From Methanoculleus chikugoensis (GTDB taxonomy: Archaea; Halobacteriota; Methanomicrobia; Methanomicrobiales; Methanoculleaceae), in contig NZ_AP019781.1 in the NCBI RefSeq assembly GCF_019669965.1, positions 372,001 to 436,000 of the forward strand: a stretch of DNA of 64,000 nt. Direction: 5' to 3'. Of this stretch, positions 36,968 through 52,484 are shown piece after piece. The translations under genes and the position numbers were made by a program. Under the pieces are notes generated by a model. That model was not told where the DNA came from and ran no database searches. It was given only the letters and a program-made list of their open reading frames with translations. Numbering within the stretch: the first letter of the stretch is position 1; every line of letters begins with the position of its first letter.

Positions 36968-37552
36968 ATGGCAAGAGAGGATACCATAGACCGGCGAATC
37001 TACATCGAGAGAGACGGGACTACGCTACTATACGCCGAACCTTCAGACAGGCGCTTCATCTATGAGATGGCCTTTGAGGACCCGGGTATCTGGCGGTCCA
37101 TGCTCGAGAAGAAGGATGATTTTGATTGGTCCGAGTTGAGGGACGAGGAAGAGCAGTTCTTCGGTAGCGTTCCCGGCAAGAGCAAATATCTGCTGATACG
37201 GTATCAGGGCGAGATCGTCGGGACGATCTCGCATACGCACAACGATGGGCGGATAGAGAACCTGGAGCTCGATATGTGGCTCCGTTCAGAGAAATATACC
37301 GGGAGAGGCATCGGCTCCGCCGTGATAGCGATGCTGATAGACCGGCTGGTCGAAGAGCACGGTATCCGAACCTTCATCATCCGGCCGTGGGTGAAAAACT
37401 CCCGCGCCGTGAGGGCGTACGAGAAGTGCGGCTTTCGGCGGCGTAATGACTTTGATCCCGCTGACTATTACGGAACATACCTGGAGCGGTACGGCGAGGG
37501 CGATTACGGTAGACTGGAGACCGCAAACATGGTCCTTGAGGTCGGCTGCTGA
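36968..37552 (+). CDS. GNAT family N-acetyltransferase (RimJ/RimL-like)
   Basis: 194 residues with the GNAT core: YQGEIVGTISHTHNDGRIEN, the acetyl-CoA loop in EKYTGRGIGSAVIAMLIDRL, and SRAVRAYEKCGFRR at motif B. The pattern resembles aminoglycoside 6'-acetyltransferase and RimJ-type enzymes. The substrate is not predictable. The second GNAT gene follows 15 bases downstream. Confidence 0.85.
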   Translation: MAREDTIDRRIYIERDGTTLLYAEPSDRRFIYEMAFEDPGIWRSMLEKKDDFDWSELRDEEEQFFGSVPGKSKYLLIRYQGEIVGTISHTHNDGRIENLELDMWLRSEKYTGRGIGSAVIAMLIDRLVEEHGIRTFIIRPWVKNSRAVRAYEKCGFRRRNDFDPADYYGTYLERYGEGDYGRLETANMVLEVGC

Positions 37553-37567
37553 TCCCGGGGGATTAGT

Positions 37568-38083
37568 ATGTACACGATACGGCAGGAGCGGCCGGCGGAT
37601 TATGAGGACGTCTATCAACTCGTAAAGAGGTCGTTTGCCACAACCGCCCATTCGGATGGAACCGAAGCGGATTACCTGAACGAACTGAGAGGAAAGGAGA
37701 CGTTCATCCCCGAACTCTCGCTGGTGGCGGAGGATGCAGAAGGTAGCATAGTAGGACAGATTGTGTTGTATGCAACCGTAATTGCCACGAACGACGGCCC
37801 GGTCACCTCCCTGGTGCTATCCCCGATCAGCGTCCGCCCGGACCGGTTCCGGCAGGGCATCGCCCGCGCCATGATGGACCGGGCTTTCCAGATCGCCCGC
37901 GAGATGGGATATACCGCGGTCTTCCTCTGCGGCGAATCCGAGACCTATCATGGACTGGGGTTTTGCGCATCGTGGATGTTCGGCATCTTCCATAAAGACG
38001 ACCCCCGGGCCGGGTGGTGCATGGCAAAAGAACTGATCCCCGGTGCTCTGGAGGGCATCCGGGGGACGATAGAGATCGTTTGA
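37568..38083 (+). CDS. GNAT family N-acetyltransferase (YhbS-like)
   Basis: 171 residues. It starts MYTIRQERPADYEDVYQLVK, with the GNAT acetyl-CoA site in RFRQGIARAMMDRAFQIARE and a YhbS-like end (LCGESETYHGLGFCASWMFG). Good GGGGG ribosome site before the ATG. It is the last host-like gene before the AT-rich island. Confidence 0.85.
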   Translation: MYTIRQERPADYEDVYQLVKRSFATTAHSDGTEADYLNELRGKETFIPELSLVAEDAEGSIVGQIVLYATVIATNDGPVTSLVLSPISVRPDRFRQGIARAMMDRAFQIAREMGYTAVFLCGESETYHGLGFCASWMFGIFHKDDPRAGWCMAKELIPGALEGIRGTIEIV

Positions 38084-38486
38084 TGAGAAGTACCTCCGGG
38101 TTTCTCCGGTTTGTTTGGAGCGTATTGGTGTTCTTGCTGCCTAGAAGCAAGGGTATCTGGAGTATGAGAATACCTGAATGGCCTCGCGTAACGACGCATA
38201 TCCAAGGTAGGTGGAGTTTTTGCATCGTTAAATGCGAGCAACGGTGGATAGAGCGCCTGAAGTTTGAGAAGCCAGAAAAATTCCAAGATGGAAATGGGAG
38301 TGAATGTGAATCTAATTGTAAACCGCGCCGAAAGCGTCCTGGTAGAGATAAAGGGAACAAGAAAAGGGAACCAGAAGATCAGTACACTATTTGAGAGTGA
38401 ATATCAAGGGTGTATATCTGCGCGCCTCTACTTGAAGACCTTTCCCTATCTAAATATTTATCGCAAAGTAGGTCAATAGACACTCA
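38084..38486. other. Left junction of the AT-rich island
   Basis: Base composition falls from GC-rich to AT-rich across this stretch. A 63-codon frame from ATG 38288 to 38479 (MEMGVNVNLIVNRAESVLVE at its start) is open but matches nothing known. A TATA box TAAATATTTATC at 38451-38462 serves the next gene. No integrase, tRNA or direct repeat marking an attachment site was recognised. Confidence 0.5.
38451..38462 (+). promoter_or_regulatory. TATA box of the zinc-ribbon/J-like/TPR gene
   Basis: TAAATATTTATC, 25-36 bases before the ATG at 38487, leaving almost no leader. No ribosome site is visible. Confidence 0.55.
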
Positions 38487-40934
38487 ATGGTATTCCATAT
38501 TTTAAAATGTCCTAAGTGTGGGATCCCACACGAGTGGGATGAAAGTCCCCCTTTGTATTGTAAGAATTGTGAAGCTGCTTTCGACGTTAAACGAGGACCT
38601 GAACAACCCATGAAATTAAATCCAGCGTCGTTAACACACCCTACCAGTAAGGAAGAAATTTCAACAATGTATGACACTAATGCATTCAGGATTTTTGGAG
38701 TTGAAAGCAATACTCATAAAAAAGAAATAAAGAGTGCTCAACAGGCTTCAAAAACTCGGGCGAAGTTAGGCGCTCCGATTCTAATATCTGATCCACTGGA
38801 CTTCCTGAATCGAATTCCAAGGGATGAAAGATCACTTCGTGATGCACAAAACTGTATTGAAACACCAAGGTTGCGCATTAGTGAGAGGCTTTTTTGGTTT
38901 ATTAACGTTAATCAAAATGATGCTGAAGCTCTTGATAAATTAAAAAAAGGCCAATATACTGATGCAATAAGTGTATGGAGTACATCTGAGGAATTGTCAG
39001 CATCAATCAATCTTGCGATTCTCTGTCATGCATACTATCTTAAACAGGATATAAACGCAGAGAATACTAAACAATGGGCGCGTATTTTTGAGCGATGGGC
39101 GAAACTCTTTAAAGATGAGAGATATTGGGTTTTTTTTGAGGAGATCGAACAACGGTCTGACTTTGAACCTCTCGCTACGCTTGATGATTTTAACTCACTA
39201 AAAACCGACATTTGGGGAATGTTAGTAAAGCCAAATGTCAGTTGCATGAAGAGAGCAATAGCTACGAACTCAGAGGATATTTTTCAGCGACATCTTGAGT
39301 TGATCCGCACATCTAATATTCCTCCCCGAGTAGTCTCTGAAATCGAATATGATATTCTCGCACCTCTGGAAGAGAAACTGATAGAAAGTCTCGATGAGGT
39401 AAATAGATTAGTTTCTGAAAACTGGGAATCATCATGCTCCATTTCTGAGAAAAAGACAGGTATCGATCGGATTTTAGAATCATTTAAGATGAGCACATTA
39501 AATAAAGCTGAAGAATTGTTGCGGTTAGCGGGAGAAAGTTCTGATTTATCAAAGAATATACGAGAAAAAATCGCTTTCTGTCTTCGGAATATTGCTATAT
39601 GTTATCATAATGAAATTGAATCTTCCGAATTAGCAGCTGTTATTTTAGAGGAAGCAAAGGTTTATGCTAAAGATATGCCTGTTTTAATGAAGATAAATGA
39701 AGATTTAGCAGTAATATCTAAAGTTATAAACGATGCCCATGAATTCGAAGAATTTGCGGAATATTATGAAAAGATAGGAAAATATGATCTGAATATCTCT
39801 AAAAATCAGATCTCTTTTAAAGACCAATGTTATGAAATACAAGATGTCACTGGCATTAAATACGGCATACTCGAAGAAAGTTTTAATGGAGTTCCAACGA
39901 CTCGTTCTTATGCAATTTGGTTGAGATTTGGAAGTGACAATTGTCCTATTAACTCCTCATCGAGATGTGTTTCCTCTTCTGATGAAAGAATTATGATGAT
40001 TGAATGCGCTGATAAAACTTGGTTTGGTATCGATAAAATCCGAAATAGATTTGATGAGATTATTAGTAGGCTGTTCCATTTAGTTCAGATCCCTCTGATT
40101 AATAAGATGATTCAGGATTTTGAATCTGGGCGAAGGATATACATATCTGATATTGCTATTGATTTTACAGGATTTTATAAGGATTTCAGTTACAACCCTG
40201 TATCAAAAGGCCTAATCTCGTTATCATCGAAACTGTTAGGTACTACAGATTTGGTGACGAAAGAGGGAAAACATAAGCATTTGTCCTGGGATAATTATCG
40301 GGGACATAACACGTCCGATGGAAAAATTAGGATATTTGATGATAAAGGTCCTTGGTTCAGTCTAAGCGCCCGTGACCACTGGAATGCAGTTAACCTCCCT
40401 TACTTTCTCGATCATATGCATGAAGATGGAAATCTCGTCCGATCTATTGAAAAATGTATTTCCGGCGTCACTGCTGTTAAAGACGAACAATCCGAAGTAA
40501 TAAATACTCTTGACAATTCCCTTAAGATCGATCCAAATAATTGGATGACTTGGTTGCAGAAAGGGCGAGCACTAAGGCATTTGGGACGATTGGAAGAAGC
40601 TCTTGCTGCATTTGATCGATTAATAGAGATTGTACCGAATGATCCTGATGCTTGGAATTTCAAAGGCCTAACTTTACTTGAGACAAATAAAGAAGTTGAG
40701 GCACTTGATTGTTTTGAGAGAGCACTCGAAATTAATTCACAACTCGCTCATGTATGGTGTAATAAGGGAATGGCGTATTCACAACTCGCTGATACGCAGA
40801 ATAATGGTGGAATGACATTTACAGCACTCACGAATTATCAAAATGCTGTGTGTGCATTAGATAGGGGTTTAGCAATAGAATTTGATCAAGACATTAAGGA
40901 GATAAGAGATCAAATTCAATCGAGTATTCAATAA
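38487..40934 (+). CDS. Zinc-ribbon, J-like and TPR protein, probable Hsp70 cofactor
   Basis: 815 residues in AT-rich DNA. Domains read from the sequence: a zinc ribbon with Cys 8, 11, 25 and 28; a J-like segment at ~64-145 (NAFRIFGVESNTHKKEIKSA, then a helix with ERSLRDAQNCI and LRISERLFWF) that lacks the HPD motif needed by true J proteins; a long helical middle; a beta-rich region at ~430-660 that may be PH-like (FKDQCYEIQDVTGIKYGILE); and three TPR repeats at ~684-800 (NWMTWLQKGRALRHLGRLEE). It is convergent with the grpE-hsp70-AAA operon. A role as dedicated Hsp70 partner or client receptor is inferred from the J-like and TPR parts and from position. Confidence 0.65.
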   Translation: MVFHILKCPKCGIPHEWDESPPLYCKNCEAAFDVKRGPEQPMKLNPASLTHPTSKEEISTMYDTNAFRIFGVESNTHKKEIKSAQQASKTRAKLGAPILISDPLDFLNRIPRDERSLRDAQNCIETPRLRISERLFWFINVNQNDAEALDKLKKGQYTDAISVWSTSEELSASINLAILCHAYYLKQDINAENTKQWARIFERWAKLFKDERYWVFFEEIEQRSDFEPLATLDDFNSLKTDIWGMLVKPNVSCMKRAIATNSEDIFQRHLELIRTSNIPPRVVSEIEYDILAPLEEKLIESLDEVNRLVSENWESSCSISEKKTGIDRILESFKMSTLNKAEELLRLAGESSDLSKNIREKIAFCLRNIAICYHNEIESSELAAVILEEAKVYAKDMPVLMKINEDLAVISKVINDAHEFEEFAEYYEKIGKYDLNISKNQISFKDQCYEIQDVTGIKYGILEESFNGVPTTRSYAIWLRFGSDNCPINSSSRCVSSSDERIMMIECADKTWFGIDKIRNRFDEIISRLFHLVQIPLINKMIQDFESGRRIYISDIAIDFTGFYKDFSYNPVSKGLISLSSKLLGTTDLVTKEGKHKHLSWDNYRGHNTSDGKIRIFDDKGPWFSLSARDHWNAVNLPYFLDHMHEDGNLVRSIEKCISGVTAVKDEQSEVINTLDNSLKIDPNNWMTWLQKGRALRHLGRLEEALAAFDRLIEIVPNDPDAWNFKGLTLLETNKEVEALDCFERALEINSQLAHVWCNKGMAYSQLADTQNNGGMTFTALTNYQNAVCALDRGLAIEFDQDIKEIRDQIQSSIQ

Positions 40935-41358
40935 ACACATGAGGCCGGGGTCACAATTCCGCAGTAAAAGTTTCTGGAGAATGGCTTTGTTTAATCCCCA
41001 ACTTGCTTTTGTGGGGGTCATCCCTAAAATCTCTGATATCCGTGAATAGGGCTTGCTCTGATAAGATAAGCCCATCATCTCGAAGGCCGAATGCGGCTGG
41101 ATAGAGTGTGGCTTTGAGTACCGCATTTTGGAGAGAGGTTTTCCCTGTTGTGATCTCTATGTTCCACTGCATAAGAAATCTGGGTTCGGTTCCCCCCCAT
41201 TAGTAGTCGGGGCGCGACCATCCGGTCAGGGCGTGGGGATATAGTTTCCATTTCCACCATGACTGGAACAGGGTTTCAAAAAGGGAAATCGGTCGTTTGG
41301 TAACAATTTGGACAAATAAACTATTGTCATCCACTTTATGAGTTGCCTGGGTAATCGA
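40935..41358. other. Convergent spacer left of the insertion sequence
   Basis: 424 bases between the TPR gene and the insertion sequence. A 73-codon minus-strand frame (41172-40951, beginning MQWNIEITTGKTSLQNAVLK) has protein-like composition but no recognised family and no clear ribosome site; it may be a small gene or a remnant. A GC-rich patch at 41190-41240 (for example CCCATTAGTAGTCGGGG) differs from its surroundings and may be a relic of another insertion. Confidence 0.4.
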
Positions 41359-41367
41359 CTCAGTTAC
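41359..41367. repeat. Target-site duplication, left copy
   Basis: CTCAGTTAC, identical to 42624-42632. The 9-bp length is typical for IS256-family insertion. Confidence 0.85.
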
Positions 41368-42623
41368 GGTAACGTCTCAGATCTTCTGTAATTTGCCTGA
41401 GCCCTGTCTCCTTGCTTGATCATTCCTTCTCCATCGTCAAATACCTTCTGCCGATAACCCACTCCTCGTTGATGTCCATCAGGATGGATCCGACCAGCCG
41501 GAGAAGGGATGCCTCGTTCGGGAACACGCCTACAACCTTGGTTCTCCGTTTCAGTTCCCTATTGACCCGCTCCACCATGTTCGTCGTTCTGAGCCGTTTC
41601 CCGTGCGGTTTTGGGAATGCCGTATAACTCATGAGCCCCGAGAGAAATCGCTCGATGGTGTTGGCTGCTTTCCGGTATCCCCGGGCATTCAGGTCATCGG
41701 CAAGATCCTGGAGTCTCTGCTCACTCCCATACGCTTCCTTCAGCCCCTCTACAACCTCCTTCTGGTGTTTCCGGGGAATATTCCTCAAGACGGCGCGGGT
41801 ACAATGAACCTGACACATCTGCCAGGATGCACCGAGGAAGGCGGCTTCAGCCGCCTTCTGGATGCCGGTATGCCCATCCGAGACGACCAGTTGAACCCCG
41901 GTGAGTCCCCGTTCTTTGAGCTCCTCGAACAGTCCTGACCAGAATTCTTCGTTCTCACAATCCGTGATTCTTGCGCCCAGGATCTCCCGGTAGCCGTCGT
42001 CCCGGACGCCGGCGACCACCAGGACCGCTTTGGTGACGTATCGTGCTCCGTCCCGGATTTTGTAGTAGGAAGCATCCACGAAGAGATACGGGATAGCCTG
42101 TTCGATCGGCCGCAGGAGGAATGCCTGCACCTGGTCGTCGAGGTCCTTGGCCAGCCGGGAGACCGAAGCCGGGGAGAGCTGGTCGATCCCCAGATGACTG
42201 ACGATCTCCTGGATCTTTCTCGTCGAAACTCCCTGGAGGTAGGATTCGACAATTGCGTTCACCAGAGCTTTCTCCACCCGGGCATAGCGCCCGAAGACCT
42301 GTGTCTCGAACGGGAGCTCCCGGAACTGCGGTTTCCGGAGGATTGTCTCCCCGTATCGGGTCTTGAGGGATCGGTCTTTGTAGCCGTTCCGATGCGCTTT
42401 CCGCGCATCAGTGCGTTCGTACTGGGCAGCTCCTGCCTGCTGGAGGGCCTCTGCGAGCATCACCTGGTTGAGGAACCCGGTGATGAGGTTCTTCATGCCA
42501 TTCTCCTGATCGGAAAGATAATCTTCGATTAACGCTAAGGGATCCATGGCCCTGTTTCTCCTTTGTCCAAATCTAGGTTGGATCCAGGGCCAATTCAATT
42601 TTACAGAAGATTCGTTACGCTAC
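41368..42623 (-). mobile_element. IS256-family insertion sequence, 1256 bp
   Basis: Bounded by imperfect terminal inverted repeats of about 39 bp (41368-41406 and 42585-42623) sharing ATCTTCTGTAA and GCCCTG, and by a perfect 9-bp direct repeat of target DNA. It encodes one intact transposase. It is GC-rich like the host genome, unlike the AT-rich island it entered, so it came from the resident pool after the island arrived. The intact ends and duplication indicate a recent insertion. Confidence 0.88.
41420..42547 (-). CDS. IS256-family (mutator type) transposase
   Basis: 375-residue DDE transposase that cuts and joins the element. Acidic catalytic residues are seen in YLFVDASYYK, LVVSDGHTGI and TNMVERVNRELKRRTKVVGV, with the family Cys-His region QMCQVHCTRAVLRNI between. 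ATG at 42547 (MDPLALIEDYLSDQENGMK) is chosen; a longer frame would begin in the terminal repeat. Full length, with no frameshift, so probably active. Confidence 0.93.
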   Translation of the reverse strand: MDPLALIEDYLSDQENGMKNLITGFLNQVMLAEALQQAGAAQYERTDARKAHRNGYKDRSLKTRYGETILRKPQFRELPFETQVFGRYARVEKALVNAIVESYLQGVSTRKIQEIVSHLGIDQLSPASVSRLAKDLDDQVQAFLLRPIEQAIPYLFVDASYYKIRDGARYVTKAVLVVAGVRDDGYREILGARITDCENEEFWSGLFEELKERGLTGVQLVVSDGHTGIQKAAEAAFLGASWQMCQVHCTRAVLRNIPRKHQKEVVEGLKEAYGSEQRLQDLADDLNARGYRKAANTIERFLSGLMSYTAFPKPHGKRLRTTNMVERVNRELKRRTKVVGVFPNEASLLRLVGSILMDINEEWVIGRRYLTMEKE

Positions 42624-42632
42624 CTCAGTTAC
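42624..42632. repeat. Target-site duplication, right copy
   Basis: CTCAGTTAC. Read on the minus strand it is GTAACTGAG and contains the TAA stop codon of the AAA+ gene, so the insertion left that reading frame intact. Confidence 0.85.
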
Positions 42633-44257
42633 TTAGGATATCGTGGCCTTGGGGCAACCCCTCTCTGTTGGATGTTATCGTATCTGGAAGACATTTCCAT
42701 TGATAAACTGGATGGATTACGCTTGATAGAATCTGTTATATGATCACAATTTATGGGCAACCCTTCTTTCATTGCAGCTCGCGCTGCATCATCAAGGATA
42801 TATTTCACATCACTACATGAATATCCGTCGAGCTCGAGAGCGATGCCCTCTAAATTGAGCGGATCTTGTGGTCGGCCCTTTAAATATACCTTCAGAAGTT
42901 CTATCCGCGCCTCAAGATCTGGGGGTTCGACATAGATCAACTTGTCAAATCTCCCAGTCCTTAATATGGCGGGATCAATCCTATCCGGTTCGTTTGTTGC
43001 AGCGAGTATAACTATTCCTTTATTTGAACATTCATTGAGTTGATAGAGAAATTCATTCACTTCTTCTGATTTGAATTGTTGATGACCCCCTAACAACGAA
43101 CGAGGTGGAACAAAAGCCTCGAACTCATCAATAAAGATGATAGATGGAGCATGCTGTTCAGCGTCATTGAATATGTCACGTATTTTCGAGACGCTATCAT
43201 GGATGAACGGACTTGCTATTTCCGAGGGAGAAATCTCAATAAAGTAATGATTCAATTCTTCAGCTAATTGTCTTGAAATGAACGTTTTCCCACAACCCGG
43301 CGGGCCGTAGAGAAGAATTCCGTTCGGAATGTTTACCTGATATAACTTGTAGATCTCTGGGTTCAGGATAGGGTGAATTACCTCTTCTAATAGTAGTTCC
43401 TTAAGTTTCTTCATTCCAGCAACTTTTGCCAGACCCCGTGGTTTCGAAAGACAGCATTCATCTGCTTCTCCTAACGATTGTGGGATATGTGGTAATTCTA
43501 AACTAATGTGCTGGTCAAATAATGCCTTTTTTAGACTATGTTCAAGCGTTTCTAATGAAGATTCTATTTGATTATTCTTTAGCAGCTCTGTTTTCAAAAA
43601 AAGGGAAAATCTTTCACTTATATCTGGGTTCCATTTATGTGGTAGGGGGATATCGTTTCCCTTTAATCTCGATGGTTCTTCTTCAATGTTGATGCCGGTT
43701 GCAAATCGATATACAATTTTGAGAAGTGATCTGTTTGAATGTAAGTATTCATGATTTTTGTAGTTAAATCGATTTGCAATGAATAATGGAATGATGATAG
43801 ATATGTCGTCAGTTGTCGCCAGAATAAACGATCCTTCATCAACCATCGGAATTAAATTGTTTTCTTTTGCATGTTTACATAGCCGTATCAGATCTCTTAA
43901 GAGAGATATCGATTGGTTTTCAGTGAGTAATTTTCCACCGTTTTTTATCTCTTGAAAATTATGAGCGATCTGAACTGTTGCTAAAAAAAGAAAGTGATCA
44001 CGAAATGCAATCCTCGTTTTTTCCAGAATTGAGATATTCTGGAGGAGTATCCACCATTTTTGGTGAAGCTCACTGGTCGCAACTGCTTCAGTATCTGTTT
44101 CGCAATGAATAACTACCCCAAAAAGATTTTTGTGGATTGGATGAACGAGTTGATAGACCTCGAGGCCATCTGAACAACAGCGTACAGTACCTATTGACCC
44201 TGATGATAAGAACTCCTTGCCTTTTGGAAACGATGGTCTGTTTTTTATCATGTGCAC
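42629..44257 (-). CDS. AAA+ ATPase of the Hsp70 island with a novel N-terminal domain
   Basis: 542 residues. The C-terminal ~260 form one AAA+ module of the FtsH/CDC48/proteasome-ATPase class: Walker A YGPPGCGKTF near 317-325, Walker B IIFIDEFEAF near 372-380, sensor LAATNEPDRIDP and arginine-finger RTGRFDK. The N-terminal ~250 residues are unlike known AAA adaptors; GSIGTVRCC followed by a helical lobe (LIRLCKHAKENNLIPMVDEG) loosely recalls a protein-kinase fold without HRD or DFG motifs. It starts with GTG (ATG two codons later) just 3 bases behind the Hsp70 stop. Likely an unfoldase or remodeller working with that Hsp70. Confidence 0.82.
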   Translation of the reverse strand: MHMIKNRPSFPKGKEFLSSGSIGTVRCCSDGLEVYQLVHPIHKNLFGVVIHCETDTEAVATSELHQKWWILLQNISILEKTRIAFRDHFLFLATVQIAHNFQEIKNGGKLLTENQSISLLRDLIRLCKHAKENNLIPMVDEGSFILATTDDISIIIPLFIANRFNYKNHEYLHSNRSLLKIVYRFATGINIEEEPSRLKGNDIPLPHKWNPDISERFSLFLKTELLKNNQIESSLETLEHSLKKALFDQHISLELPHIPQSLGEADECCLSKPRGLAKVAGMKKLKELLLEEVIHPILNPEIYKLYQVNIPNGILLYGPPGCGKTFISRQLAEELNHYFIEISPSEIASPFIHDSVSKIRDIFNDAEQHAPSIIFIDEFEAFVPPRSLLGGHQQFKSEEVNEFLYQLNECSNKGIVILAATNEPDRIDPAILRTGRFDKLIYVEPPDLEARIELLKVYLKGRPQDPLNLEGIALELDGYSCSDVKYILDDAARAAMKEGLPINCDHITDSIKRNPSSLSMEMSSRYDNIQQRGVAPRPRYPK

Positions 44258-44260
44258 ACA

Positions 44261-46801
44261 TTATTTTCGTTTTATTCCAGGTTCAAATCTCTCTTCCTCC
44301 TCTGCTTGCACGGTACTCTTTGGCAGTAATTCCCAGAGGCCTTTGATTATCTCTTTTAAGGTGTCACCATCTCCACGACTAATTGCACCTTGCCCAAGTG
44401 CAATCAGTCGTTGGGATTCTTGTATGTTAACAAAACTCTCTCTGTTTTCGCACAACTCCTCAAAAACTTGCCTAATATACCAATCCTGCTCGAAGAGAAT
44501 TCTCCACCTTAAGTTATCCATGTCCTTGGTTATTTTAATTAATGCCCGCTCATTTTCCTCGTCAACTTTTTTATCTGCTTCATAATTCAATAGTTCAAAC
44601 TCTTTTTTATCTATCGAGGTTCCCCACGTGGTCACAACTTCTTGAGTTATCGCTCTATACTCTCGCAATTCTCGTAAAACGATTGAAAATTTCCTTTTAA
44701 CGGAAATATCGTTCTCGATTCTGCTAAGATCTCCTCGTATTTCTTTTGACTTCTCAATCACTCGTTTTGCATCATCTGGATCGTTTGAACTTTTGTTTTG
44801 GTATCTTTTATTTTCCTCGGTGAGTTCTTCTAGTTTCATTCTAATTTCATTCAACTCTTTTTTAATATTACTGGCACTGCTTTCTTCTTGGGCAAACTCA
44901 TTTAAATTGACTATTCTTTCAAGATGATTGTCAATCTCCCTATCAACCTCTTTTACCTTCTCAACAACAATATCTTCACTCTCTTTTGGGACATAGACTC
45001 GTTCCTGAAAATACTGACCGATTACGGGAACAAAGGCCTGCACTTTCATGAGCCTGGATGTGGAAATCTCAATTGAAATTTCAATGTCCGCTCCTTCAGG
45101 AATCGGCCTTCGAATCTCTTCAGAGCGGATTTTAAGCGCACCGACAATGTTATTCGCTTCTGGATCTGCTAGGTTTTCACCCTCCCAGATCTTTATCGCA
45201 AGATAATCATCGTTTAGGCCAGGGGTTAATGTCTTTTTCGCTGTATAGGTGATATTCTTAAACGCGGGAAGTGGGGTTGAGCGACTAAAGATAATATCTA
45301 TCTCTTTTTTCCTGTCATTATTGATAACTTCTACACCAATTGTATGTGGTAGAGGTGGCTCTGAAAGAGTCAATCCGTGACGGATTATTATTTTTTCTGG
45401 ATTTGGAGTGAGGTCATTGCCTTTTTCATCTCTGGCATAGATCCAGAATTTATTTGTTGTATCTTCTAGTAAATAGGCATCAAACTCGAAGTAGTCATCT
45501 TTTACGGGAATCCAACCGCTATCCCAATGGTTGGACTCTGATTGGATTGATATTTCAATTGATTGAGTGCCTTTGGGTTTTCTCTCAACCTTTCCAGCAA
45601 CTAATGTTGTTGTTTCAGCCCAGACTGGTTCGTATGCAAGGTTGAGAACAACCTCAGACTCTGAATAATTTTCAGTTGTAGGAAGATTGGTACGTTTTGG
45701 TAATGGTAGTGTGGATGCATAGATTGCAGCACCGCGAGCAACAACAGTCATTGGATCAATTGAGAATTCTAAACGAATGCCTAAATGTGATTTGAGCATT
45801 TCTCGTAATATTGGCATATAAGTAGATCCCCCTACCAATATTACTGTCTCAATATCACTTGTGGTTAACTTCGCGTTTTTCAATGCGCTTTTACAGAGCT
45901 CAATTGTTTTTAGAATATATGGTTCGACCAATGGTTGCAGGTCCATTCTAGTAATTGGGATATCCGCCTCAATTACGGCGCCCTGTAGATCATCTCCAAC
46001 ATCAAAAATACTGATAATTGTTCTGTCTGAATAACTTAATTCTATTTTAGCTTCTTCCGCTTTTACTCTCAGTATTTGAGACAACCTTCGATGAAATGTT
46101 GGATTCTCCTGTTGACTGGGCAATCTGAAATTAGTTTCCAGGTGTGGCCAGAGTATTGTTTCCACAATTAATCGATCGAAATCCTTACCCCCAAGCATGT
46201 TGTTCCCTTGATGTGCCAGAATTGACATGTTACCATCTTTGGTGGAAATAAGGGCGAGATCAAAAGTTCCACCGCCAAGATCGTACACAAGCCATTTTTT
46301 ATCCCGGGAATCCGCTTTCATGCCATACGCGATTGACGCGGCGAGGGGTTCCTGCAATAGAGGAGCATCTTCAAGCCCAGCAAGAGTTGCTGCACGAGCC
46401 GTTGCTTCACATTGAAGTTGACCGAATGCTGCAGGTACAGTAATTACAGCACATTCTACTTTTTCGTCAGTTTGAAGCCGAACGTCGGCTAGTAGAGATT
46501 TTAAAACCTCAGCTGATAACTCTTCAGGAGATAGGGAAAGCGAGGCTGCTGAAAAATTAATTTTATCGCTTTGTCCCATAAGGCGTTTGAATTCTGATGC
46601 GACGTTTTCTGGGTCTAAAATAAGGGTCTGATACGCCCTTTTTCCACAAAGAATGCGCTTATTTTTGTCTATCCTTATAACAGATGGAGTCAATTCATTT
46701 TGGTCGCGATTCTTAATAACACGGATGTTTGTTCCATCAAATTTTGCTATCGCTGAATTAGTCGTGCCAAGATCAATACCATAATTTATCATATCAGTCA
46801 T
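44261..46801 (-). CDS. Divergent long Hsp70 (DnaK-like) chaperone
   Basis: 846 residues, about 200 longer than DnaK. The ATPase domain is intact: phosphate-1 GIDLGTTNSAIAKF, phosphate-2 VYDLGGGTFDLALI, adenosine motif ILVGGSTYMPILREM and EPLAASIAYG. After ~380 the substrate-binding part is enlarged, with a beta-rich insertion (VWAETTTLVAGKVERKPKGT onward) before the usual beta-sandwich, and a long charged helical C-terminus (NEIRMKLEELTEENKRYQNK). The EEVD or DnaK-type tail is absent. GAGGAG in the end of the upstream GrpE-like gene serves as ribosome site. Probably specialised rather than housekeeping. Confidence 0.92.
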   Translation of the reverse strand: MTDMINYGIDLGTTNSAIAKFDGTNIRVIKNRDQNELTPSVIRIDKNKRILCGKRAYQTLILDPENVASEFKRLMGQSDKINFSAASLSLSPEELSAEVLKSLLADVRLQTDEKVECAVITVPAAFGQLQCEATARAATLAGLEDAPLLQEPLAASIAYGMKADSRDKKWLVYDLGGGTFDLALISTKDGNMSILAHQGNNMLGGKDFDRLIVETILWPHLETNFRLPSQQENPTFHRRLSQILRVKAEEAKIELSYSDRTIISIFDVGDDLQGAVIEADIPITRMDLQPLVEPYILKTIELCKSALKNAKLTTSDIETVILVGGSTYMPILREMLKSHLGIRLEFSIDPMTVVARGAAIYASTLPLPKRTNLPTTENYSESEVVLNLAYEPVWAETTTLVAGKVERKPKGTQSIEISIQSESNHWDSGWIPVKDDYFEFDAYLLEDTTNKFWIYARDEKGNDLTPNPEKIIIRHGLTLSEPPLPHTIGVEVINNDRKKEIDIIFSRSTPLPAFKNITYTAKKTLTPGLNDDYLAIKIWEGENLADPEANNIVGALKIRSEEIRRPIPEGADIEISIEISTSRLMKVQAFVPVIGQYFQERVYVPKESEDIVVEKVKEVDREIDNHLERIVNLNEFAQEESSASNIKKELNEIRMKLEELTEENKRYQNKSSNDPDDAKRVIEKSKEIRGDLSRIENDISVKRKFSIVLRELREYRAITQEVVTTWGTSIDKKEFELLNYEADKKVDEENERALIKITKDMDNLRWRILFEQDWYIRQVFEELCENRESFVNIQESQRLIALGQGAISRGDGDTLKEIIKGLWELLPKSTVQAEEEERFEPGIKRK

Positions 46802-46802
46802 C

Positions 46803-47210
46803 TTACTCCTCGTGGATCAACATTGGTACGTCTTCCAGCGTACCTTTTTCGAGAATAACTTGACCTTGATTTATAACCTGGCCATTCAATAAGACAAGAG
46901 GTTCAATTACCTCCTTGATAGTAACTGATCCTTTTGGTAGTTGCGAATTTTCCTCGATATCAATTACTTCCAATGCCATCCCAGCATCATATGCTTGATT
47001 CTTTAGTTCGACAAACGAAATGCCTTCTTTTTCAAACAAATAGAAGAGGTTTAAAATTGAATGCCTGATTACTGTAAATTGCTTCTCTTTAATGGGCTCA
47101 ATGTGATTTCGAAGACGCCAAACTTCAACAGCACATTTAATGAAATTTTTTCTCTCAATTTCGAATGTATTTCTCTTGGTAACATTCACGTCACAAATGC
47201 CCCCGACCAT
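46803..47210 (-). CDS. Short GrpE-like nucleotide exchange factor
   Basis: 135 residues. The C-terminal part has the GrpE beta-domain pattern (IEPLVLLNGQVINQGQVILE), preceded by helices (FTVIRHSILNLFYLFEKEGI). The long N-terminal helix of classic GrpE is reduced, and overall similarity is weak. It is first in the operon, with the Hsp70 ATG one base after its stop, the same pairing as grpE-dnaK. It probably exchanges nucleotide on this Hsp70 only. Confidence 0.65.
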   Translation of the reverse strand: MVGGICDVNVTKRNTFEIERKNFIKCAVEVWRLRNHIEPIKEKQFTVIRHSILNLFYLFEKEGISFVELKNQAYDAGMALEVIDIEENSQLPKGSVTIKEVIEPLVLLNGQVINQGQVILEKGTLEDVPMLIHEE

Positions 47211-47239
47211 TTACATTAAGTGATTCTAAAACAACATTA

Positions 47240-47249
47240 GATAAATAAC
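47240..47249 (-). promoter_or_regulatory. TATA box of the grpE-hsp70-AAA operon
   Basis: GTTATTTATC on the minus strand, 30-39 bases before the ATG at 47210, so the mRNA would be almost leaderless. The 252 bases from here to the next gene mark the right junction of the island; no repeat matching the left junction was found. Confidence 0.55.
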
Positions 47250-47462
47250 TTATTACTCAGATCACTCCTGCGTTAGTGGCTGAAAAACTTTTTACTTCTT
47301 TTAAGGGATTCTTACAGAGTACTGCGTGATCATAATTGCATTCGTTACGATCAACTGGCGATATTAACAAGCACCATGACTAAAAATTGGAGTAATTATC
47401 CTGATACTTTACTGGAATGTAACTATAGAGGTACGTCCCGGCTAAAAACTGGGGGCTTCCCC

Positions 47463-48494
47463 TTACGCCTTTCTAAACTCCTTCCAGAGATACGCGAGCC
47501 CGAAGCATCCCGAGAGCATCATGTCCCCGAAGGGCGCCGCCTGGTAGGCTTCCGGGAGCAGCCGGAGCCGGTTCGGGCCGGTGACGACGACGGCACCGGT
47601 CTTGAGTGGTCTTCGGATCGCCGCCCCGTGGCCGTTGTCGTCGAAGACCTCCTCTGAGGTCAGGGTGCCGTCGGCGAGCCGCCGGATGTAGTCCTGCAGT
47701 TTCGCGGGGTCGAGCGCGCCGGTGTGGTGCTCGAAGAGCCCGTGGATCTCCCGCCCTTTCAGGGTGAAGCAGAGGGTGTGTCCGTTTCCGGCGTTGACGA
47801 GGGTCACCCCGTCCTTTGCCATCTGCCGCACCCGCGGGTCACAGAGCGTCCCGATGAGGGCGACGGGGCCGGTGTCGGTGACGAGCGCGTCCGGTGCCTG
47901 GCTCCGGACGGCCTGCATCCGGGTCATGTCGGCGAGCGGCGGGTCGGTAACCAGCGAGAGGAGGTCCCAGTCCCCGGCGTCCAGCCGCTCCCGCATCAGT
48001 TCGAACCGGTGGATGCGGTTGCTCCGGTGCGGCGAGTAGCCGTGATCCTGGACTGCGACCGCGACGTTCCCGGGGTAGTCCACCCCGAAGAGGGAGAGAG
48101 CCTGCCTGAGTTCCTGCTCCATGTAGTCGGTGGTGCGGACGGTTTCCGCGTCCCCCGGTGGGGTGGCGCGGATCTCGACTCCAAGCGCTCGCACCCGTTC
48201 CGGGTCGTCGTGGAGGGTGAGAGCGGCCTCCTCTGTGGCGTAGACGGGAAGGCCTGCTGCCAGATGTTCGCGTATTGCGCCGGTGTTCGCGCCACCGCCC
48301 ATCAGGTATCCGTCCAGGAAGACCGGGAGCCCGGCGCGGGTTGCCTGCCGGATCTTCTCCGCCGTCACCACGGTCGGGGAGGGGAGGACCAGTTTGATGC
48401 TGTTCTCGATCGATCGGCCGGGCTCGTAGACCAGGATGTCCTGGGTGCCCCGGCCGACATCGATGGCGAGGAGTGATGTTTTCAGGTCGATCAT
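47463..48494 (-). CDS. DUF1786 family ASKHA-fold protein
   Basis: 343 residues. It begins MIDLKTSLLAIDVGRGTQDI, a phosphate-1 motif like that of the actin/Hsp70/sugar-kinase fold, and has a second glycine-rich site DTGPVALIGTL plus TLVNAGNGHTLCF. It matches the methanogen-enriched DUF1786 (COG4012-like) group, sometimes noted near radical enzymes. Here it lies directly downstream of a class III ribonucleotide reductase, which is a glycyl-radical enzyme family; the link is suggestive only. Confidence 0.75.
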   Translation of the reverse strand: MIDLKTSLLAIDVGRGTQDILVYEPGRSIENSIKLVLPSPTVVTAEKIRQATRAGLPVFLDGYLMGGGANTGAIREHLAAGLPVYATEEAALTLHDDPERVRALGVEIRATPPGDAETVRTTDYMEQELRQALSLFGVDYPGNVAVAVQDHGYSPHRSNRIHRFELMRERLDAGDWDLLSLVTDPPLADMTRMQAVRSQAPDALVTDTGPVALIGTLCDPRVRQMAKDGVTLVNAGNGHTLCFTLKGREIHGLFEHHTGALDPAKLQDYIRRLADGTLTSEEVFDDNGHGAAIRRPLKTGAVVVTGPNRLRLLPEAYQAAPFGDMMLSGCFGLAYLWKEFRKA

Positions 48495-48582: not shown

Positions 48583-51500
48583 TCAGGCATCCGCCCGGTC
48601 CGCCGCCGGGGAGGTGCCGGCACCGGTTGCCCGGTCTTGGCGCGCCGGTTTCAGTTCCCGGTACTCCTTGAGGGAGACCGTCAGGTCGCGGGTGAAGGCG
48701 AAGTAGCCGATCTGGGTCGTCCGGCAGAGGTTCATCGCCATTTCCATCAGCCCCCGGGGATCGGGGCGCGCTTCCCCGAGCCAGATATGGAAGATGTTGC
48801 CGCCGTCCACGACGGGGAAGAAGACGTGCTCGATCTCGATCCTTTTTGTGAGCGGGACGGGGGCCGCCGGGGTGACGTGGGTGCCGTTCGTGTAGTAGAT
48901 GGGGAGATCGAGCGTCGTGCCGAGCATATCGAGCGCCGTATCCGCGTCGCCCTTGATGACCTTGATCGCGTGGTCGCGGAACCGCTCGTCGAGGAGGTCG
49001 GCGACCGCGAACCGCTGGCCGGTCGTCTCCGCCGGGGTGCGGGCGAGGGCGATCGTCATGTTGTGCTTCTTCGAGAGTTCGCGCGCGTACATCTCGAGTT
49101 CGGTCATCGCCCGGACGGCGAGGCGGAACGCCTCCTTCGACTCGTGGAGCTGGTGGCCGGTGAAGTGCTGCACCATCTCGTTGACCCCGACGACGCCGAT
49201 GGTGTAGACGAGCCCTTCGAGATCCACGGCAATCGCGCCGCGTTCGCCGGTGTTAGGGTCCTTCGGGCGCTGCATCGCAAACGGCATCCTGCCGTTCGTC
49301 CGGATGAGGGACATCCAGCGACGCTTGATACGGTAGAGGTCGACGGCGATGTCCATGAGCGATTTCAGTTCGGAAAAGAGCCGTTCCTGGTCGCCCTCCG
49401 CCTTGTACGCCGCCCGCGGACAGTTGATCGACATCACCTGCCAGGATCCCATCGAGAAGTGCTTCCCCTCGCGGAAGTAGAGCTTGTCCTCGAACTGGTC
49501 GTCCTCGTCGGCGAGGGAGGAAAATTGGTACGCGCAACATTGATAGCACGAGATCCCCTCTCCGGCCCCCCGGTAGGCGGGGATCTGGTTGTCGTAGTAG
49601 GGGCTGCCGTACTTGGACGCGAGCTCGAACGTCATCAGGTAGAGATCCTGGTAGGTCGGGAGATCCGGGTGCTCGCGGTTGAACTCCTCGTCCTCGGTGA
49701 GGAAGTCGGGCTCGATGCTGATCTCGGGTTTCGGGAAGGAGAAGGGCTTGCCCCAGTAGTCGCCCTCGAGCATCACCTCCATCAGCGCCTTGAAGAGGAG
49801 CCGGACCTCCCGCTCGAACTCGCCGTAGGTCCGGAGCGGCGCCTGTTCTCCGTTCCAGACCTTGCCGCGGTAGACGCAGGGCTTGTCCTTCCAGAGGGTC
49901 GGGACGCCGGGGGAGAGCTGGACCGACGAGAAGACCACCTGGCCGCCCCGGGCGACCATCATCTGGGTCATCTCGTAGACGAACATCTGCATCAGCTGCC
50001 GGATCTCCTCGTAGTCCATCCCCTCGAAGAAGGGCGCCATGAACGTGAGGAAGTTGTAGTAGCCCTGGCCGCCGGCGAAGTTCGTCTGGGCGGAGCCGAG
50101 CGCCTTGACCGCGTGGAGGACCGCCACCTCGGCCCGCTTCGCGGGGCCGGCGACCGAGGCCTTCGTCCCGTTCCCGTCGGGCATCAGGCCGTAGTAGAAG
50201 AAGTAGCGGAGATCCCAATCCTGGCAGTTGTGGATGAGGAGGCCGTCCGATGCGTAGAACGTGTGGCTCTCCTCGCTCCCGTCGCCGTCGAGGAAGAGGT
50301 CGTAGACGTACTCGCCGGTGGGCTCCGCGGACCCGATCTCGACAACCGTCTCCTCCCGTTCGGCGGTCCGTGTTCCCTTCACCGCGGAGAGGAACCTGTC
50401 GATGTGGTTCTGCCGTTCGTCGAGGAATGTGGCGTACCGGGCGAACGTCTCGATGTTCTTCCTCCCGTTGAGCTGGAGCCGGTAGAGTGTCCGCCGCTCT
50501 TCTTCGCCGTAGAGTTCGACGATATGCGGCGACATCCCGAGCGAGGTGAGCAGGAGCGAGAGTTCCTGCCGGAGCGCCGGGGAAGCGGTGGTGTAGTTGA
50601 CGATGCAGTCCGATTTTTCCGGGCGGTAGTATGCCGAACCGTCCCCGGTGAAGAGGGCGGAGAGGAACTCGTGGAGGAGCACGTCGTCCAGGTGGTAGAC
50701 GATCCAGGGGAGGCGTTTTCCTGCTGCCCCCTCGGGGATGGCAAAGACGTAGCGGAAGAGCAGGTAGGCTGCCTTTCCGCCGAAGTAGACCTGCAGCGCC
50801 CGGTTTCGCTCCACCTCGACCCCGTAGATGGTCGTGGTGTCGGGAGCGCCGCCGGCGACCGTTGCATAGGTGTTCAGGGCAGCGCACGCCGCGGCCTGGA
50901 TCGCGGGCGCCTGCCGGTTCTCGGTGATCGCGAGGTTGTACTGCCCGACCGCCGGGGCGGCGTTATAGTTCCCCTCCGAGACGAAGAACCCGAGGAGCCG
51001 AACGAGTTCCGGCGTAAGGGTGAGAAGGGCAGGGAGTTCGTGCTCGCTCCCCGCGGCCCCGATGGTGACCCCGGCGTAGTCCTCGATGCCGTAGCGACGA
51101 GAGAAGGCTGCAAAGAGTGCGACCGGCATGATCCCGCGCGTATACCACTGCTTCTGGTGCTCGACGCCGAGCTCCCGCGAGATCTCGGCGTATGAAGCGG
51201 CCTGCCTGCTCTGCACCACGTGGCTGAAGATCCCTTCGGCACCGCGGACGTAGACGTTCCCGAGGAGTTCGGCCGGAACCGATGCGGATAGTTCCCGGAC
51301 GAGATCGATCGTTCCGATCGTCTCCCCACGAAGACCGTCGGCCGCGGAGATTCTGTAGAAGGCGTCCCCGGGCCTGACCTCGTCGGCACGACGGACGGCC
51401 ATCCCTTCATCGGTCCGCACCGGGATCCGGTGCTCGCCGGTGACCCGGAGCGTTCGTCCGCTGGACGTCCGGATCCGGCGCATCTCGCCCGGCTTCACCC

Positions 51501-52212
51501 TCCGGCGAGTCACCTTTGCGACCCGCCTCCAGCCTCCCGGGGTGAGTGCAGAGAGGTCCTGCGGGAGCCACGCATCGCCATCGATCGGGAGCTCGTCAAG
51601 GCGAATACTCCTGGTGCGGTTCTCCATCCGCAGGGGCACAACCGTGCTCCCGTCGATACAGAACGGGCGAGTACCAAAGTATTCCAGGTCGTGGATGTGG
51701 AGATCGCCGCGGAGGTGGTGGTCCGCAAGGTCCGGGGGGAGTTGCAGGAGGTACTGCTCCTTGCTGATCTTGTCCGCCTTCTTCTTGTGGGATGTCTCGG
51801 CGTTCTCCTGGAGGTTCGCGTTGTCGTGCGCCTCGAACCCGCGCCCGACGTCGATGAGGTGCGCATCGAAGACCGGGGTTCCCACCCGGGTGCAGACGTT
51901 GCGGTAGGGGACGAGGCCGCGCTCGAGGAGCGTCATGTTGACGATCTCGCGAATCAGGGGGCCGGAGAGCGACTGAAGACCCAGCATCTGGATCTTCTTC
52001 TCGACTCTCCGGGCGATATCCTTCGCCGTCTCCTCGTCGGCCCCCTCGTAGCCGTAGAAGGTCTCCACGAGCCGGGTCTCCTCCAGAATCTGCCTGACGA
52101 TCCGGTTCCGGTCCCAGTCGAGGAGGAAGCCGCGGGATGTCCTGACCTTCGGGAACGTCGGAACGAACTCCCCGAATAGAGTCGCCTGTGTCGACTTGCG
52201 GGTCAACCTCAT
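48583..52212 (-). CDS. nrdD: Anaerobic (class III) ribonucleotide reductase with intein
   Basis: 1209-residue precursor: 731 residues of NrdD plus a 478-residue intein (50227-51660). NrdD reduces ribonucleotides by radical chemistry. The N-terminal ~100 residues are an ATP-cone; catalytic-domain markers are FGTRPF/CQDWDLRYFFYYG (interrupted by the intein), GISCYQCCAYQFSS and SINCPRAAYKA. The C-terminus stops soon after YFAFTRDLTVSLKEYRELK: relatives continue with a four-Cys zinc ribbon and the RxxGY glycyl-radical loop, which are absent here in all frames. ATG at 52212 overlaps the redoxin stop (ATGA). An nrdG activase is not in the window. Confidence 0.85.
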   Translation of the reverse strand: MRLTRKSTQATLFGEFVPTFPKVRTSRGFLLDWDRNRIVRQILEETRLVETFYGYEGADEETAKDIARRVEKKIQMLGLQSLSGPLIREIVNMTLLERGLVPYRNVCTRVGTPVFDAHLIDVGRGFEAHDNANLQENAETSHKKKADKISKEQYLLQLPPDLADHHLRGDLHIHDLEYFGTRPFCIDGSTVVPLRMENRTRSIRLDELPIDGDAWLPQDLSALTPGGWRRVAKVTRRRVKPGEMRRIRTSSGRTLRVTGEHRIPVRTDEGMAVRRADEVRPGDAFYRISAADGLRGETIGTIDLVRELSASVPAELLGNVYVRGAEGIFSHVVQSRQAASYAEISRELGVEHQKQWYTRGIMPVALFAAFSRRYGIEDYAGVTIGAAGSEHELPALLTLTPELVRLLGFFVSEGNYNAAPAVGQYNLAITENRQAPAIQAAACAALNTYATVAGGAPDTTTIYGVEVERNRALQVYFGGKAAYLLFRYVFAIPEGAAGKRLPWIVYHLDDVLLHEFLSALFTGDGSAYYRPEKSDCIVNYTTASPALRQELSLLLTSLGMSPHIVELYGEEERRTLYRLQLNGRKNIETFARYATFLDERQNHIDRFLSAVKGTRTAEREETVVEIGSAEPTGEYVYDLFLDGDGSEESHTFYASDGLLIHNCQDWDLRYFFYYGLMPDGNGTKASVAGPAKRAEVAVLHAVKALGSAQTNFAGGQGYYNFLTFMAPFFEGMDYEEIRQLMQMFVYEMTQMMVARGGQVVFSSVQLSPGVPTLWKDKPCVYRGKVWNGEQAPLRTYGEFEREVRLLFKALMEVMLEGDYWGKPFSFPKPEISIEPDFLTEDEEFNREHPDLPTYQDLYLMTFELASKYGSPYYDNQIPAYRGAGEGISCYQCCAYQFSSLADEDDQFEDKLYFREGKHFSMGSWQVMSINCPRAAYKAEGDQERLFSELKSLMDIAVDLYRIKRRWMSLIRTNGRMPFAMQRPKDPNTGERGAIAVDLEGLVYTIGVVGVNEMVQHFTGHQLHESKEAFRLAVRAMTELEMYARELSKKHNMTIALARTPAETTGQRFAVADLLDERFRDHAIKVIKGDADTALDMLGTTLDLPIYYTNGTHVTPAAPVPLTKRIEIEHVFFPVVDGGNIFHIWLGEARPDPRGLMEMAMNLCRTTQIGYFAFTRDLTVSLKEYRELKPARQDRATGAGTSPAADRADA
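50227..51660 (-). other. Intein in NrdD, 478 residues, LAGLIDADG type
   Basis: Starts at Cys185 of the precursor (CIDGSTVVPLRMEN) and ends GLLIHN, followed by extein Cys (CQDWD): all three splice residues (Cys1, His-Asn end, Cys+1) are present. The splicing block TGEHRIPV holds the conserved His. Homing-endonuclease blocks are LLGFFVSEGNY and LSALFTGDGSAYY, each with the acidic residue of LAGLIDADG enzymes. The insertion site RPF/CQD is at a conserved catalytic-domain segment. Likely active in splicing, and perhaps in homing. Confidence 0.93.
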
Positions 52213-52484
52213 GCCTCCGCGATCAGGTCGGCGACAAGGTTTTCCTGGAACGCGCCGCCGCTGAAGAGATCGGCGGAGGTGTAGAATGCGTCGCCCTTCT
52301 GCAGAACCGGCGCTTCCTGGACGAACACGCCGTTCATGCGGAGTTCGGTCAGCGCCTCGGCGGACGCCATGTCGCACTCGACGAAGGGGACCTCCTTTGA
52401 GTTCAGGAACTCTTTGAGTATTTCGCAATTCGGGCAGAATTCCAGTGTGTATACGGTGAATTGCGTTGTATCTGAAATGATAAT
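52209..52484 (-). CDS. NrdH/glutaredoxin-like redoxin with non-standard start
   Basis: About 91 residues (QFTVYTLEFCPNCEILKEFL) with the redox motif CPNC on a thioredoxin fold. Its TGA overlaps the nrdD ATG, matching NrdD types that take electrons from a redoxin rather than formate. No ATG, GTG or TTG exists in frame between the upstream stop at about 52494 and the CPNC motif. The first codons after that stop include ATT (52484), ATC and ATT. A TATA box (AAATATAG, 52505-52512) predicts transcription start at about 52482, so a leaderless mRNA with ATT or ATC start is the simplest reading. Confidence 0.65.
   Translation of the reverse strand: MIISDTTQFTVYTLEFCPNCEILKEFLNSKEVPFVECDMASAEALTELRMNGVFVQEAPVLQKGDAFYTSADLFSGGAFQENLVADLIAEA

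What the first reader, a model, noticed from the sequence alone, without database searches (positions are those of the whole stretch)
38487..40934. J-like domain without HPD fused to a zinc ribbon and TPRs
Residues ~64-145 follow the helix pattern of a J domain (FRIFGV start, late helix with RLRISERLFWF) but the HPD tripeptide needed to trigger Hsp70 ATPase is missing. Combined with a zinc ribbon, a possible PH-like region and TPRs, it may recruit clients or hold Hsp70 without stimulating it.
Basis: inference. Interest (0 to 1): 0.6.

Follow-up and report, generated by a model that had tools for sequence, protein, structure and literature searches.

The report
HPD-less J-like partner of odd Hsp70
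A mobile gene cluster in a methane-producing archaeon, with relatives in bacterial plasmids, prophage-like contigs and defence islands, encodes its own rewired Hsp70 chaperone machine in which the J-type helper has lost the motif that normally switches Hsp70 on and the Hsp70 has lost the matching contact, so it probably works by an unstudied switch.

Summary
The 815-aa gene at 38487-40934 is real and the reading is largely right. Residues ~60-140 match the J domain: the family profile aligns in register with DnaJ far above a shuffle null (score 26.9 vs 8.9±1.8), and a modest AlphaFold model finds mostly J domains in the PDB. HPD is absent here and in every relative found. Its Hsp70 keeps all ATPase motifs but has lost the J-contact arginine (DnaK R167) in 12/12 members (Arg in 106/106 canonical Hsp70s) and the VLLLD-type linker (0/12 vs 103/105). 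HPD loss is thus matched by loss of HPD's targets. The module sits on a ~9.4-kb AT-rich island, absent from a close relative and ~100% identical in another species whose flanks differ by 2-10%. Relatives neighbour BREX, Zorya, Gabija, RADAR and restriction genes. Best explanation: a dedicated, co-evolved, HPD-independent co-chaperone of a mobile, probably defensive Hsp70 machine. 'Holds Hsp70 without stimulating' is possible but unsupported. Zinc ribbon and TPRs hold; PH-like region unproven. No description found in the literature searched.

The parts
38487..40934 (+). 815-aa protein: zinc ribbon + HPD-less J-like domain + helical solenoid + beta-rich (possibly PH-like) region + C-terminal TPRs
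   Evidence: ORF; Pfam TPR only; AlphaFold
38508..38570 (+). CPKC...CKNC zinc-ribbon-like motif, residues 8-28
   Evidence: sequence; the Aeromonas relative L014 14530-16554 has a parallel N-terminal CxxC pair
38664..38906 (+). J-like domain, residues 60-140; helices at 66-70, 78-94, 114-125, 127-139; no HPD between helices II and III
   Evidence: hhalign with shuffle null, AlphaFold and Foldseek, family alignment
38913..39776 (+). alpha-helical solenoid, residues 143-430
   Evidence: AlphaFold, pLDDT mostly 70-90 over residues 240-410
39774..40451 (+). beta-rich region conserved with the bacterial relatives; PH-like not proven
   Evidence: alignment A11; weak DUF6585 and IQGAP2 hits in relatives or the profile
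40479..40787 (+). TPR repeats, residues ~665-767
   Evidence: Pfam
42629..44257 (-). AAA+ ATPase of the FtsH/Cdc48/PAN clade with an N-terminal degenerate kinase-like domain
   Evidence: Pfam AAA 1.9e-35; relatives L009 and L022 hit Pkinase at 6.8e-35 and 3.4e-26 and align over this region
44261..46801 (-). divergent 846-aa Hsp70: NBD with intact ATPase motifs, no canonical linker or SBD, C-terminal coiled coil
   Evidence: Pfam HSP70 only over 8-365; motif and linker comparison
46361..46363 (-). codon of Pro147, equivalent to DnaK Arg167 (the HPD contact)
   Evidence: alignment with 106 canonical Hsp70s
46803..47210 (-). 135-aa mini-GrpE: matches the C-terminal half of GrpE, lacks the long N-terminal helix
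   Evidence: hhalign score 42.3, Prob 86%; null 12.0, sd 2.7, max 24.2
41420..42598 (-). Mutator/IS256-type transposase between the J-like gene and the operon
   Evidence: Pfam Transposase_mut 2.3e-107
38085..47475 (.). AT-rich acquired island holding the module (GC 0.32-0.48 outside the transposase; flanks mostly 0.56-0.70)
   Evidence: empty site in G049 and GC profile; ~100% identity with G048 against diverged flanks

Best explanation
The protein is the dedicated J-like adaptor of a self-contained, horizontally mobile Hsp70 machine (J-like + mini-GrpE + rewired Hsp70, usually + AAA+). Shown: the J-type fold signal, absence of HPD across the family, loss of the HPD-contact Arg and linker in the partner Hsp70 with its ATPase motifs kept, conserved operon linkage, mobility and defence-gene neighbourhoods. 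Inferred: the TPR/solenoid/beta-rich parts recognise a client or a trigger; the J-like domain docks on its own Hsp70 through an interface that does not use the HPD-R167-linker switch; the mini-GrpE resets the nucleotide; the AAA+ ring pulls on or disassembles the client. The likely role is a threshold sensor or remodeller in phage or plasmid conflict rather than general proteostasis, since the host has a separate DnaK-DnaJ-GrpE set.
For: J fold. HPD absent in all relatives. Reciprocal loss in Hsp70 (R167: 12/12 lost vs 106/106 Arg; linker 0/12 vs 103/105; ATPase motifs intact). HPD contacts R167 and L391: PMC13012618. Mini-GrpE. Linkage in Aminobacter, Haliscomenobacter, Polaromonas, Sinorhizobium, Pseudomonas, Vibrio, Aeromonas, E. 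coli and viral contigs. Monophyletic Hsp70 clade, support 1.000. Empty site and recent transfer. Neighbouring BREX, Zorya, Gabija, RdrB, type IIG. Separate housekeeping DnaK, DnaJ, GrpE.
Against: No interaction or ATPase data. The J similarity is remote (hhalign Prob 56%, Foldseek E 0.49, mean pLDDT 67 with only 4 sequences). The Hsp70 losses descend from one ancestor, so they are one event kept, not 12 events. PADLOC has no model for the module, and defence-island location is guilt by association. In the window the J-like gene is convergent with the operon and separated from it by an IS element.
Confidence: 0.58

Rival explanations
1. Pam16-type holder: the HPD-less J-like domain occupies Hsp70 (or a canonical J protein) and keeps it from being stimulated.
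For: Mitochondrial Pam16 is a known HPD-less J-like regulator that dimerises with Pam18 (search; detail from general knowledge). HPD is missing here.
Against: Pam16 works with an HPD-bearing J partner; none was seen in any of these modules. The cluster's Hsp70 has lost the site HPD acts on, so there is no canonical stimulation to block.
Confidence: 0.14
2. Structural relic: the J-like domain only caps the helical solenoid and no longer contacts Hsp70; the link with Hsp70 is by other regions or only by shared regulation.
For: HPD lost; the acidic hairpin that receives J helix II is not conserved in the partner Hsp70; the domain varies and carries an insert in the long subgroup.
Against: The domain is recognisable in most members across phyla with a constant helix III/IV motif, and a dedicated GrpE-like factor and ATPase motifs are kept.
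Confidence: 0.15
3. Ordinary extra chaperone set for stress proteostasis, with no conflict role.
For: Hsp70, GrpE-like and AAA+ are proteostasis proteins; many archaea carry DnaK sets of bacterial origin (general knowledge).
Against: Sporadic (2 of 232 genomes of the order), mobile, Arg and linker lost, next to defence genes in several loci, and the host already has DnaK-DnaJ-GrpE.
Confidence: 0.07
4. The J resemblance is chance: a generic helical N-terminus.
For: No Pfam J hit, weak Foldseek E-values, nothing J-like by phmmer in the PDB.
Against: Profile score about 10 sd above the null in register over four helices, in both subgroups; most Foldseek hits are J domains; co-encoded Hsp70 and GrpE-like proteins.
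Confidence: 0.06

Closest known systems
DnaJ/Hsp40 J-domain proteins
   Same: four-helix J topology in register; partner Hsp70 and GrpE-like factor encoded alongside; zinc ribbon and TPR as in some JDPs
   Different: no HPD in any member; no Pfam DnaJ match; partner Hsp70 lacks R167 and the VLLLD-type linker
Pam16/Tim16 J-like proteins
   Same: J fold without HPD
   Different: no HPD-bearing J partner in the module; prokaryotic multi-domain protein linked to a divergent Hsp70
GAP1-N2 GTPase conflict systems with Hsp70, GrpE and DnaJ/TPR (Kaur et al. 2020, PMC7159879)
   Same: compact Hsp70 + GrpE + J/TPR modules proposed to act in conflict by thresholding
   Different: no GAP1-type GTPase or FNIII protein seen here; AAA+ with degenerate kinase instead; J-like without HPD
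CoCoNuT systems (PMC11090510)
   Same: Hsp70-like NBD in defence islands beside BREX and restriction genes
   Different: no McrB GTPase; the Hsp70 here keeps its ATPase motifs and has J-like and GrpE-like partners
HscC and its J partner (Rahnella plasmid, L233)
   Same: dedicated divergent Hsp70 with a linked J protein
   Different: that Hsp70 keeps the Arg and its J protein has RPD

Membership tests
J-domain proteins (Pfam DnaJ, PF00226) | J fold (helices I-IV) | tested here: met
   profile alignment with null, AlphaFold and Foldseek; moderate confidence, weak E-values
J-domain proteins (Pfam DnaJ, PF00226) | HPD tripeptide between helices II and III | tested here: not met
   absent in the window protein and all relatives
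J-domain proteins (Pfam DnaJ, PF00226) | match to the Pfam DnaJ model | tested here: not met
   the genome has only two other matches
J-domain proteins (Pfam DnaJ, PF00226) | stimulates Hsp70 ATPase | not testable with these tools
   needs biochemistry
canonical Hsp70/DnaK (the neighbour) | ATPase motifs of the NBD | tested here: met
canonical Hsp70/DnaK (the neighbour) | Arg167 and hydrophobic VLLLD-type linker | tested here: not met
   0/12 members vs 106/106 and 103/105 canonical
canonical Hsp70/DnaK (the neighbour) | substrate-binding domain | tested here: not met
   Pfam HSP70 matches residues 8-365 only
GrpE (the 135-aa neighbour) | GrpE C-terminal beta domain | tested here: met
   hhalign against 26 GrpEs with null
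GrpE (the 135-aa neighbour) | long N-terminal dimer helix; Pfam match | tested here: not met
   too short; no Pfam hit
known anti-phage systems | match to PADLOC models | tested here: not met
   no model for the J-like protein; AAA+ hits IetA only through the ATPase domain
known anti-phage systems | location beside defence genes on mobile DNA | tested here: met
   relatives; window island mobile:
known anti-phage systems | demonstrated phage protection | not testable with these tools
   needs a plaque assay
GAP1-N2 systems (PMC7159879) | GAP1-type GTPase in the cluster | tested here: inconclusive
   none on the window island by Pfam scan of its proteins; none named in the neighbour annotations, but no GAP1 profile was run

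The most novel reading that the evidence does not exclude
A natural Hsp70 machine in which the HPD-Arg167-linker switch, treated as universal, was lost on both sides and replaced by another coupling, used by a mobile immune module of archaea and bacteria.
Probability: 0.4. Interest if true: 0.82.

Novelty: new variant of a known kind. Interest (0 to 1): 0.62.

Why it matters
HPD is described as universally conserved and its displacement of R167 as the trigger of Hsp70 hydrolysis (PMC13012618). A natural, deeply conserved pair lacking HPD, R167 and the linker gives a direct test of whether the J domain can drive Hsp70 through helices II and III alone, a point that paper raises (triple HPD/AAA variants can still stimulate in some systems). 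It also points to an uncharacterised chaperone-based module in defence islands, with a member in an E. coli genome (HeN100) that can be tested in laboratory strains.

Tried and rejected
Single-protein genome-contig scan found only the same gene in Methanoculleus chikugoensis. tblastn of the J-like protein against plasmids found nothing and a bacterial homolog found nothing in phages; relatives came through the Hsp70 instead. hhalign of the small protein against single E. coli GrpE failed but succeeded against a GrpE profile. The full-length AlphaFold model was poor beyond residue 420 and its Foldseek hits (14-3-3, designed repeats) are uninformative. phmmer of the J-like region (about residues 59-164) against the PDB found no J domain. 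The PH-like proposal was tested by profile and Pfam and left open. Haloarcula L016 (Hsp70 + HPD-bearing J) was rejected as a member and used as a control. The genome search could not be centred on a bacterium, so abundance in bacteria was not measured.

Full report
Observation. The ORF at 38487-40934 encodes 815 aa. Pfam sees only TPRs. The window lies in a 2.62-Mb genome of an archaeon related to Methanoculleus chikugoensis. The CxxC pairs (C8, C11, C25, C28) and the TPRs are there. The PH-like region is a conserved beta-rich part but only weak, sub-threshold hits (DUF6585 in two relatives; IQGAP2 domain at E 0.015 with the profile) came back, so it stays open.

J-like domain. No single-sequence method sees it. 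Shuffling the columns gave 8.9±1.8, max 15.7 in 150; the short and long subgroups each exceeded their own null. AlphaFold of residues 55-165, with a 4-sequence alignment, gave mean pLDDT 67 (about 80 in the helices) and the order short helix I, long II, III, IV. Foldseek against the PDB: top hit the CbpA J domain (prob 0.92, E 0.49), and most of the first forty are J domains, including the one bound to DnaK in 5NRO. No E-value is significant by itself; the uniform hit list and the null test together carry the claim. HPD is absent from every member; in the long subgroup the II-III loop is longer and carries (I/L)xRxE-like residues.

The module. tblastn with the Hsp70 found full-length relatives on plasmids of Aminobacter, Haliscomenobacter, Polaromonas, Sinorhizobium, Pseudomonas, Vibrio and Aeromonas, then in two E. 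coli chromosomes (only HeN100 has the full set) and in viral contigs. The E. coli-type locus L020 lies near integrases and L021 follows phage tail, amidase and holin-like ORFs (read by eye). A J-like protein is encoded beside the Hsp70 in these loci; it is clear in most and degenerate in Pseudomonas L012. The small protein upstream of Hsp70 aligns with the C-terminal half of GrpE (42.3; null 12.0±2.7). An AAA+ ATPase follows in most; in Haliscomenobacter and L022 it carries a kinase domain with the catalytic-loop Asp replaced (HNE and NSI by direct reading), and the window and L021 copies align with it over a more degenerate N-terminus. In several bacterial members an envelope-type protein (TM segment, peptidoglycan-binding or Cys-rich part) is fused to the J-like protein or sits next to it.

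Reciprocal loss. In DnaK, the HPD Asp contacts R167 and the HPD His contacts L391 of the linker (PMC13012618). Across 106 canonical Hsp70s fetched here, the R167 position is always Arg; in the 12 module members it is Pro, Ala, Val, Ser or Glu. A VLLLD-type linker is found in 103 of 105 canonical and 0 of 12 module Hsp70s. Phosphate and adenosine motifs, the FKR Lys region and Glu171 are intact. The module Hsp70s form one clade (support 1.000), so this is one ancient change kept across archaea, Bacteroidota and Proteobacteria, with a freely drifting residue. Controls: HscC (Arg; partner RPD), Haloarcula (Arg; partner HPD) and Rhodococcus (Arg; partner HPN) keep Arg; Tsukamurella, sister to the clade, has Gly and a partner with HPK (partner motifs by eye).

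Mobility and context. The module lies on an AT-rich stretch, 38.09-47.48 kb, between GC-rich flanks. Relative G049 lacks it: window 36843 and 47476 are neighbours there apart from a 75-base remnant. G048 carries it at 100% over 36.98-41.48 and 42.48-47.0 kb, while flanks are 95-99% on the left and 90-98% on the right: a recent transfer between species. The host has a separate DnaK, DnaJ and GrpE at 1.200-1.203 Mb. PADLOC confirms neighbours BREX (L009), Zorya and GajB (L010), Gabija and type IIG (L011), a weaker Gabija-like pair (L008) and RdrB (L017).

Mechanism. Shown: fold signal, motif losses, linkage, mobility. Inferred: the J-like domain docks on its own Hsp70 without the HPD switch; solenoid, TPR and beta-rich parts bind the client or trigger; mini-GrpE resets; AAA+ acts downstream. 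Because DnaK R167A is suppressed by DnaJ D35N (as cited in PMC13012618), loss on both sides is compatible with a working pair, so 'holds without stimulating' does not follow from the missing HPD.

Known or new. Literature searches found no description; the library lacks many subscription papers, so this is not proof of novelty. The nearest are the GAP1-N2 systems with Hsp70, GrpE and DnaJ/TPR (PMC7159879) and CoCoNuT Hsp70-like domains (PMC11090510). By features it works around the same kind of machine as DnaK-DnaJ-GrpE but fails the defining motif tests of both J proteins and canonical Hsp70s, so it is filed as a new variant, not as a member.

Noticed in passing
42629-44257: The AAA+ ATPase has a degenerate protein-kinase-like N-terminal half; relatives L009 and L022 keep a recognisable kinase fold with a broken catalytic loop.
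   Followed up: partly
41420-42598: The IS256-type element sits at the same place in G048, yet this stretch is only 90-97% identical while the rest of the island is 100%, suggesting replacement or conversion of the IS copy.
   Followed up: no
L235:5001-8825: Tsukamurella plasmid Hsp70 has Gly at the R167 position and its linked partner has HPK instead of HPD: a possible second natural Asp/Arg co-loss.
   Followed up: partly
L234:5001-8207: Rhodococcus plasmid module Hsp70 + J-TPR (HPN motif) + GrpE beside an FtsK/SpoIIIE protein: another dedicated Hsp70 set, Arg kept.
   Followed up: no
L008, L013, L014, L015, L017, L020, L021: Many bacterial modules include a TM, peptidoglycan-binding or Cys-rich (RYC...DYNxRCSxYRY) envelope-type protein, suggesting a membrane-linked output.
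   Followed up: no
48583-52428: Long ORF that looks like an anaerobic ribonucleotide reductase interrupted by an intein.
   Followed up: no
36968-38083: Two GNAT acetyltransferase genes flank the island; G049 retains only a 75-base remnant of the second, and G048 shares them at 100%, so they may travel with the island.
   Followed up: partly
L022:2113-7614: The Bacteroidota-like locus encodes two J-like proteins in tandem before the mini-GrpE.
   Followed up: no
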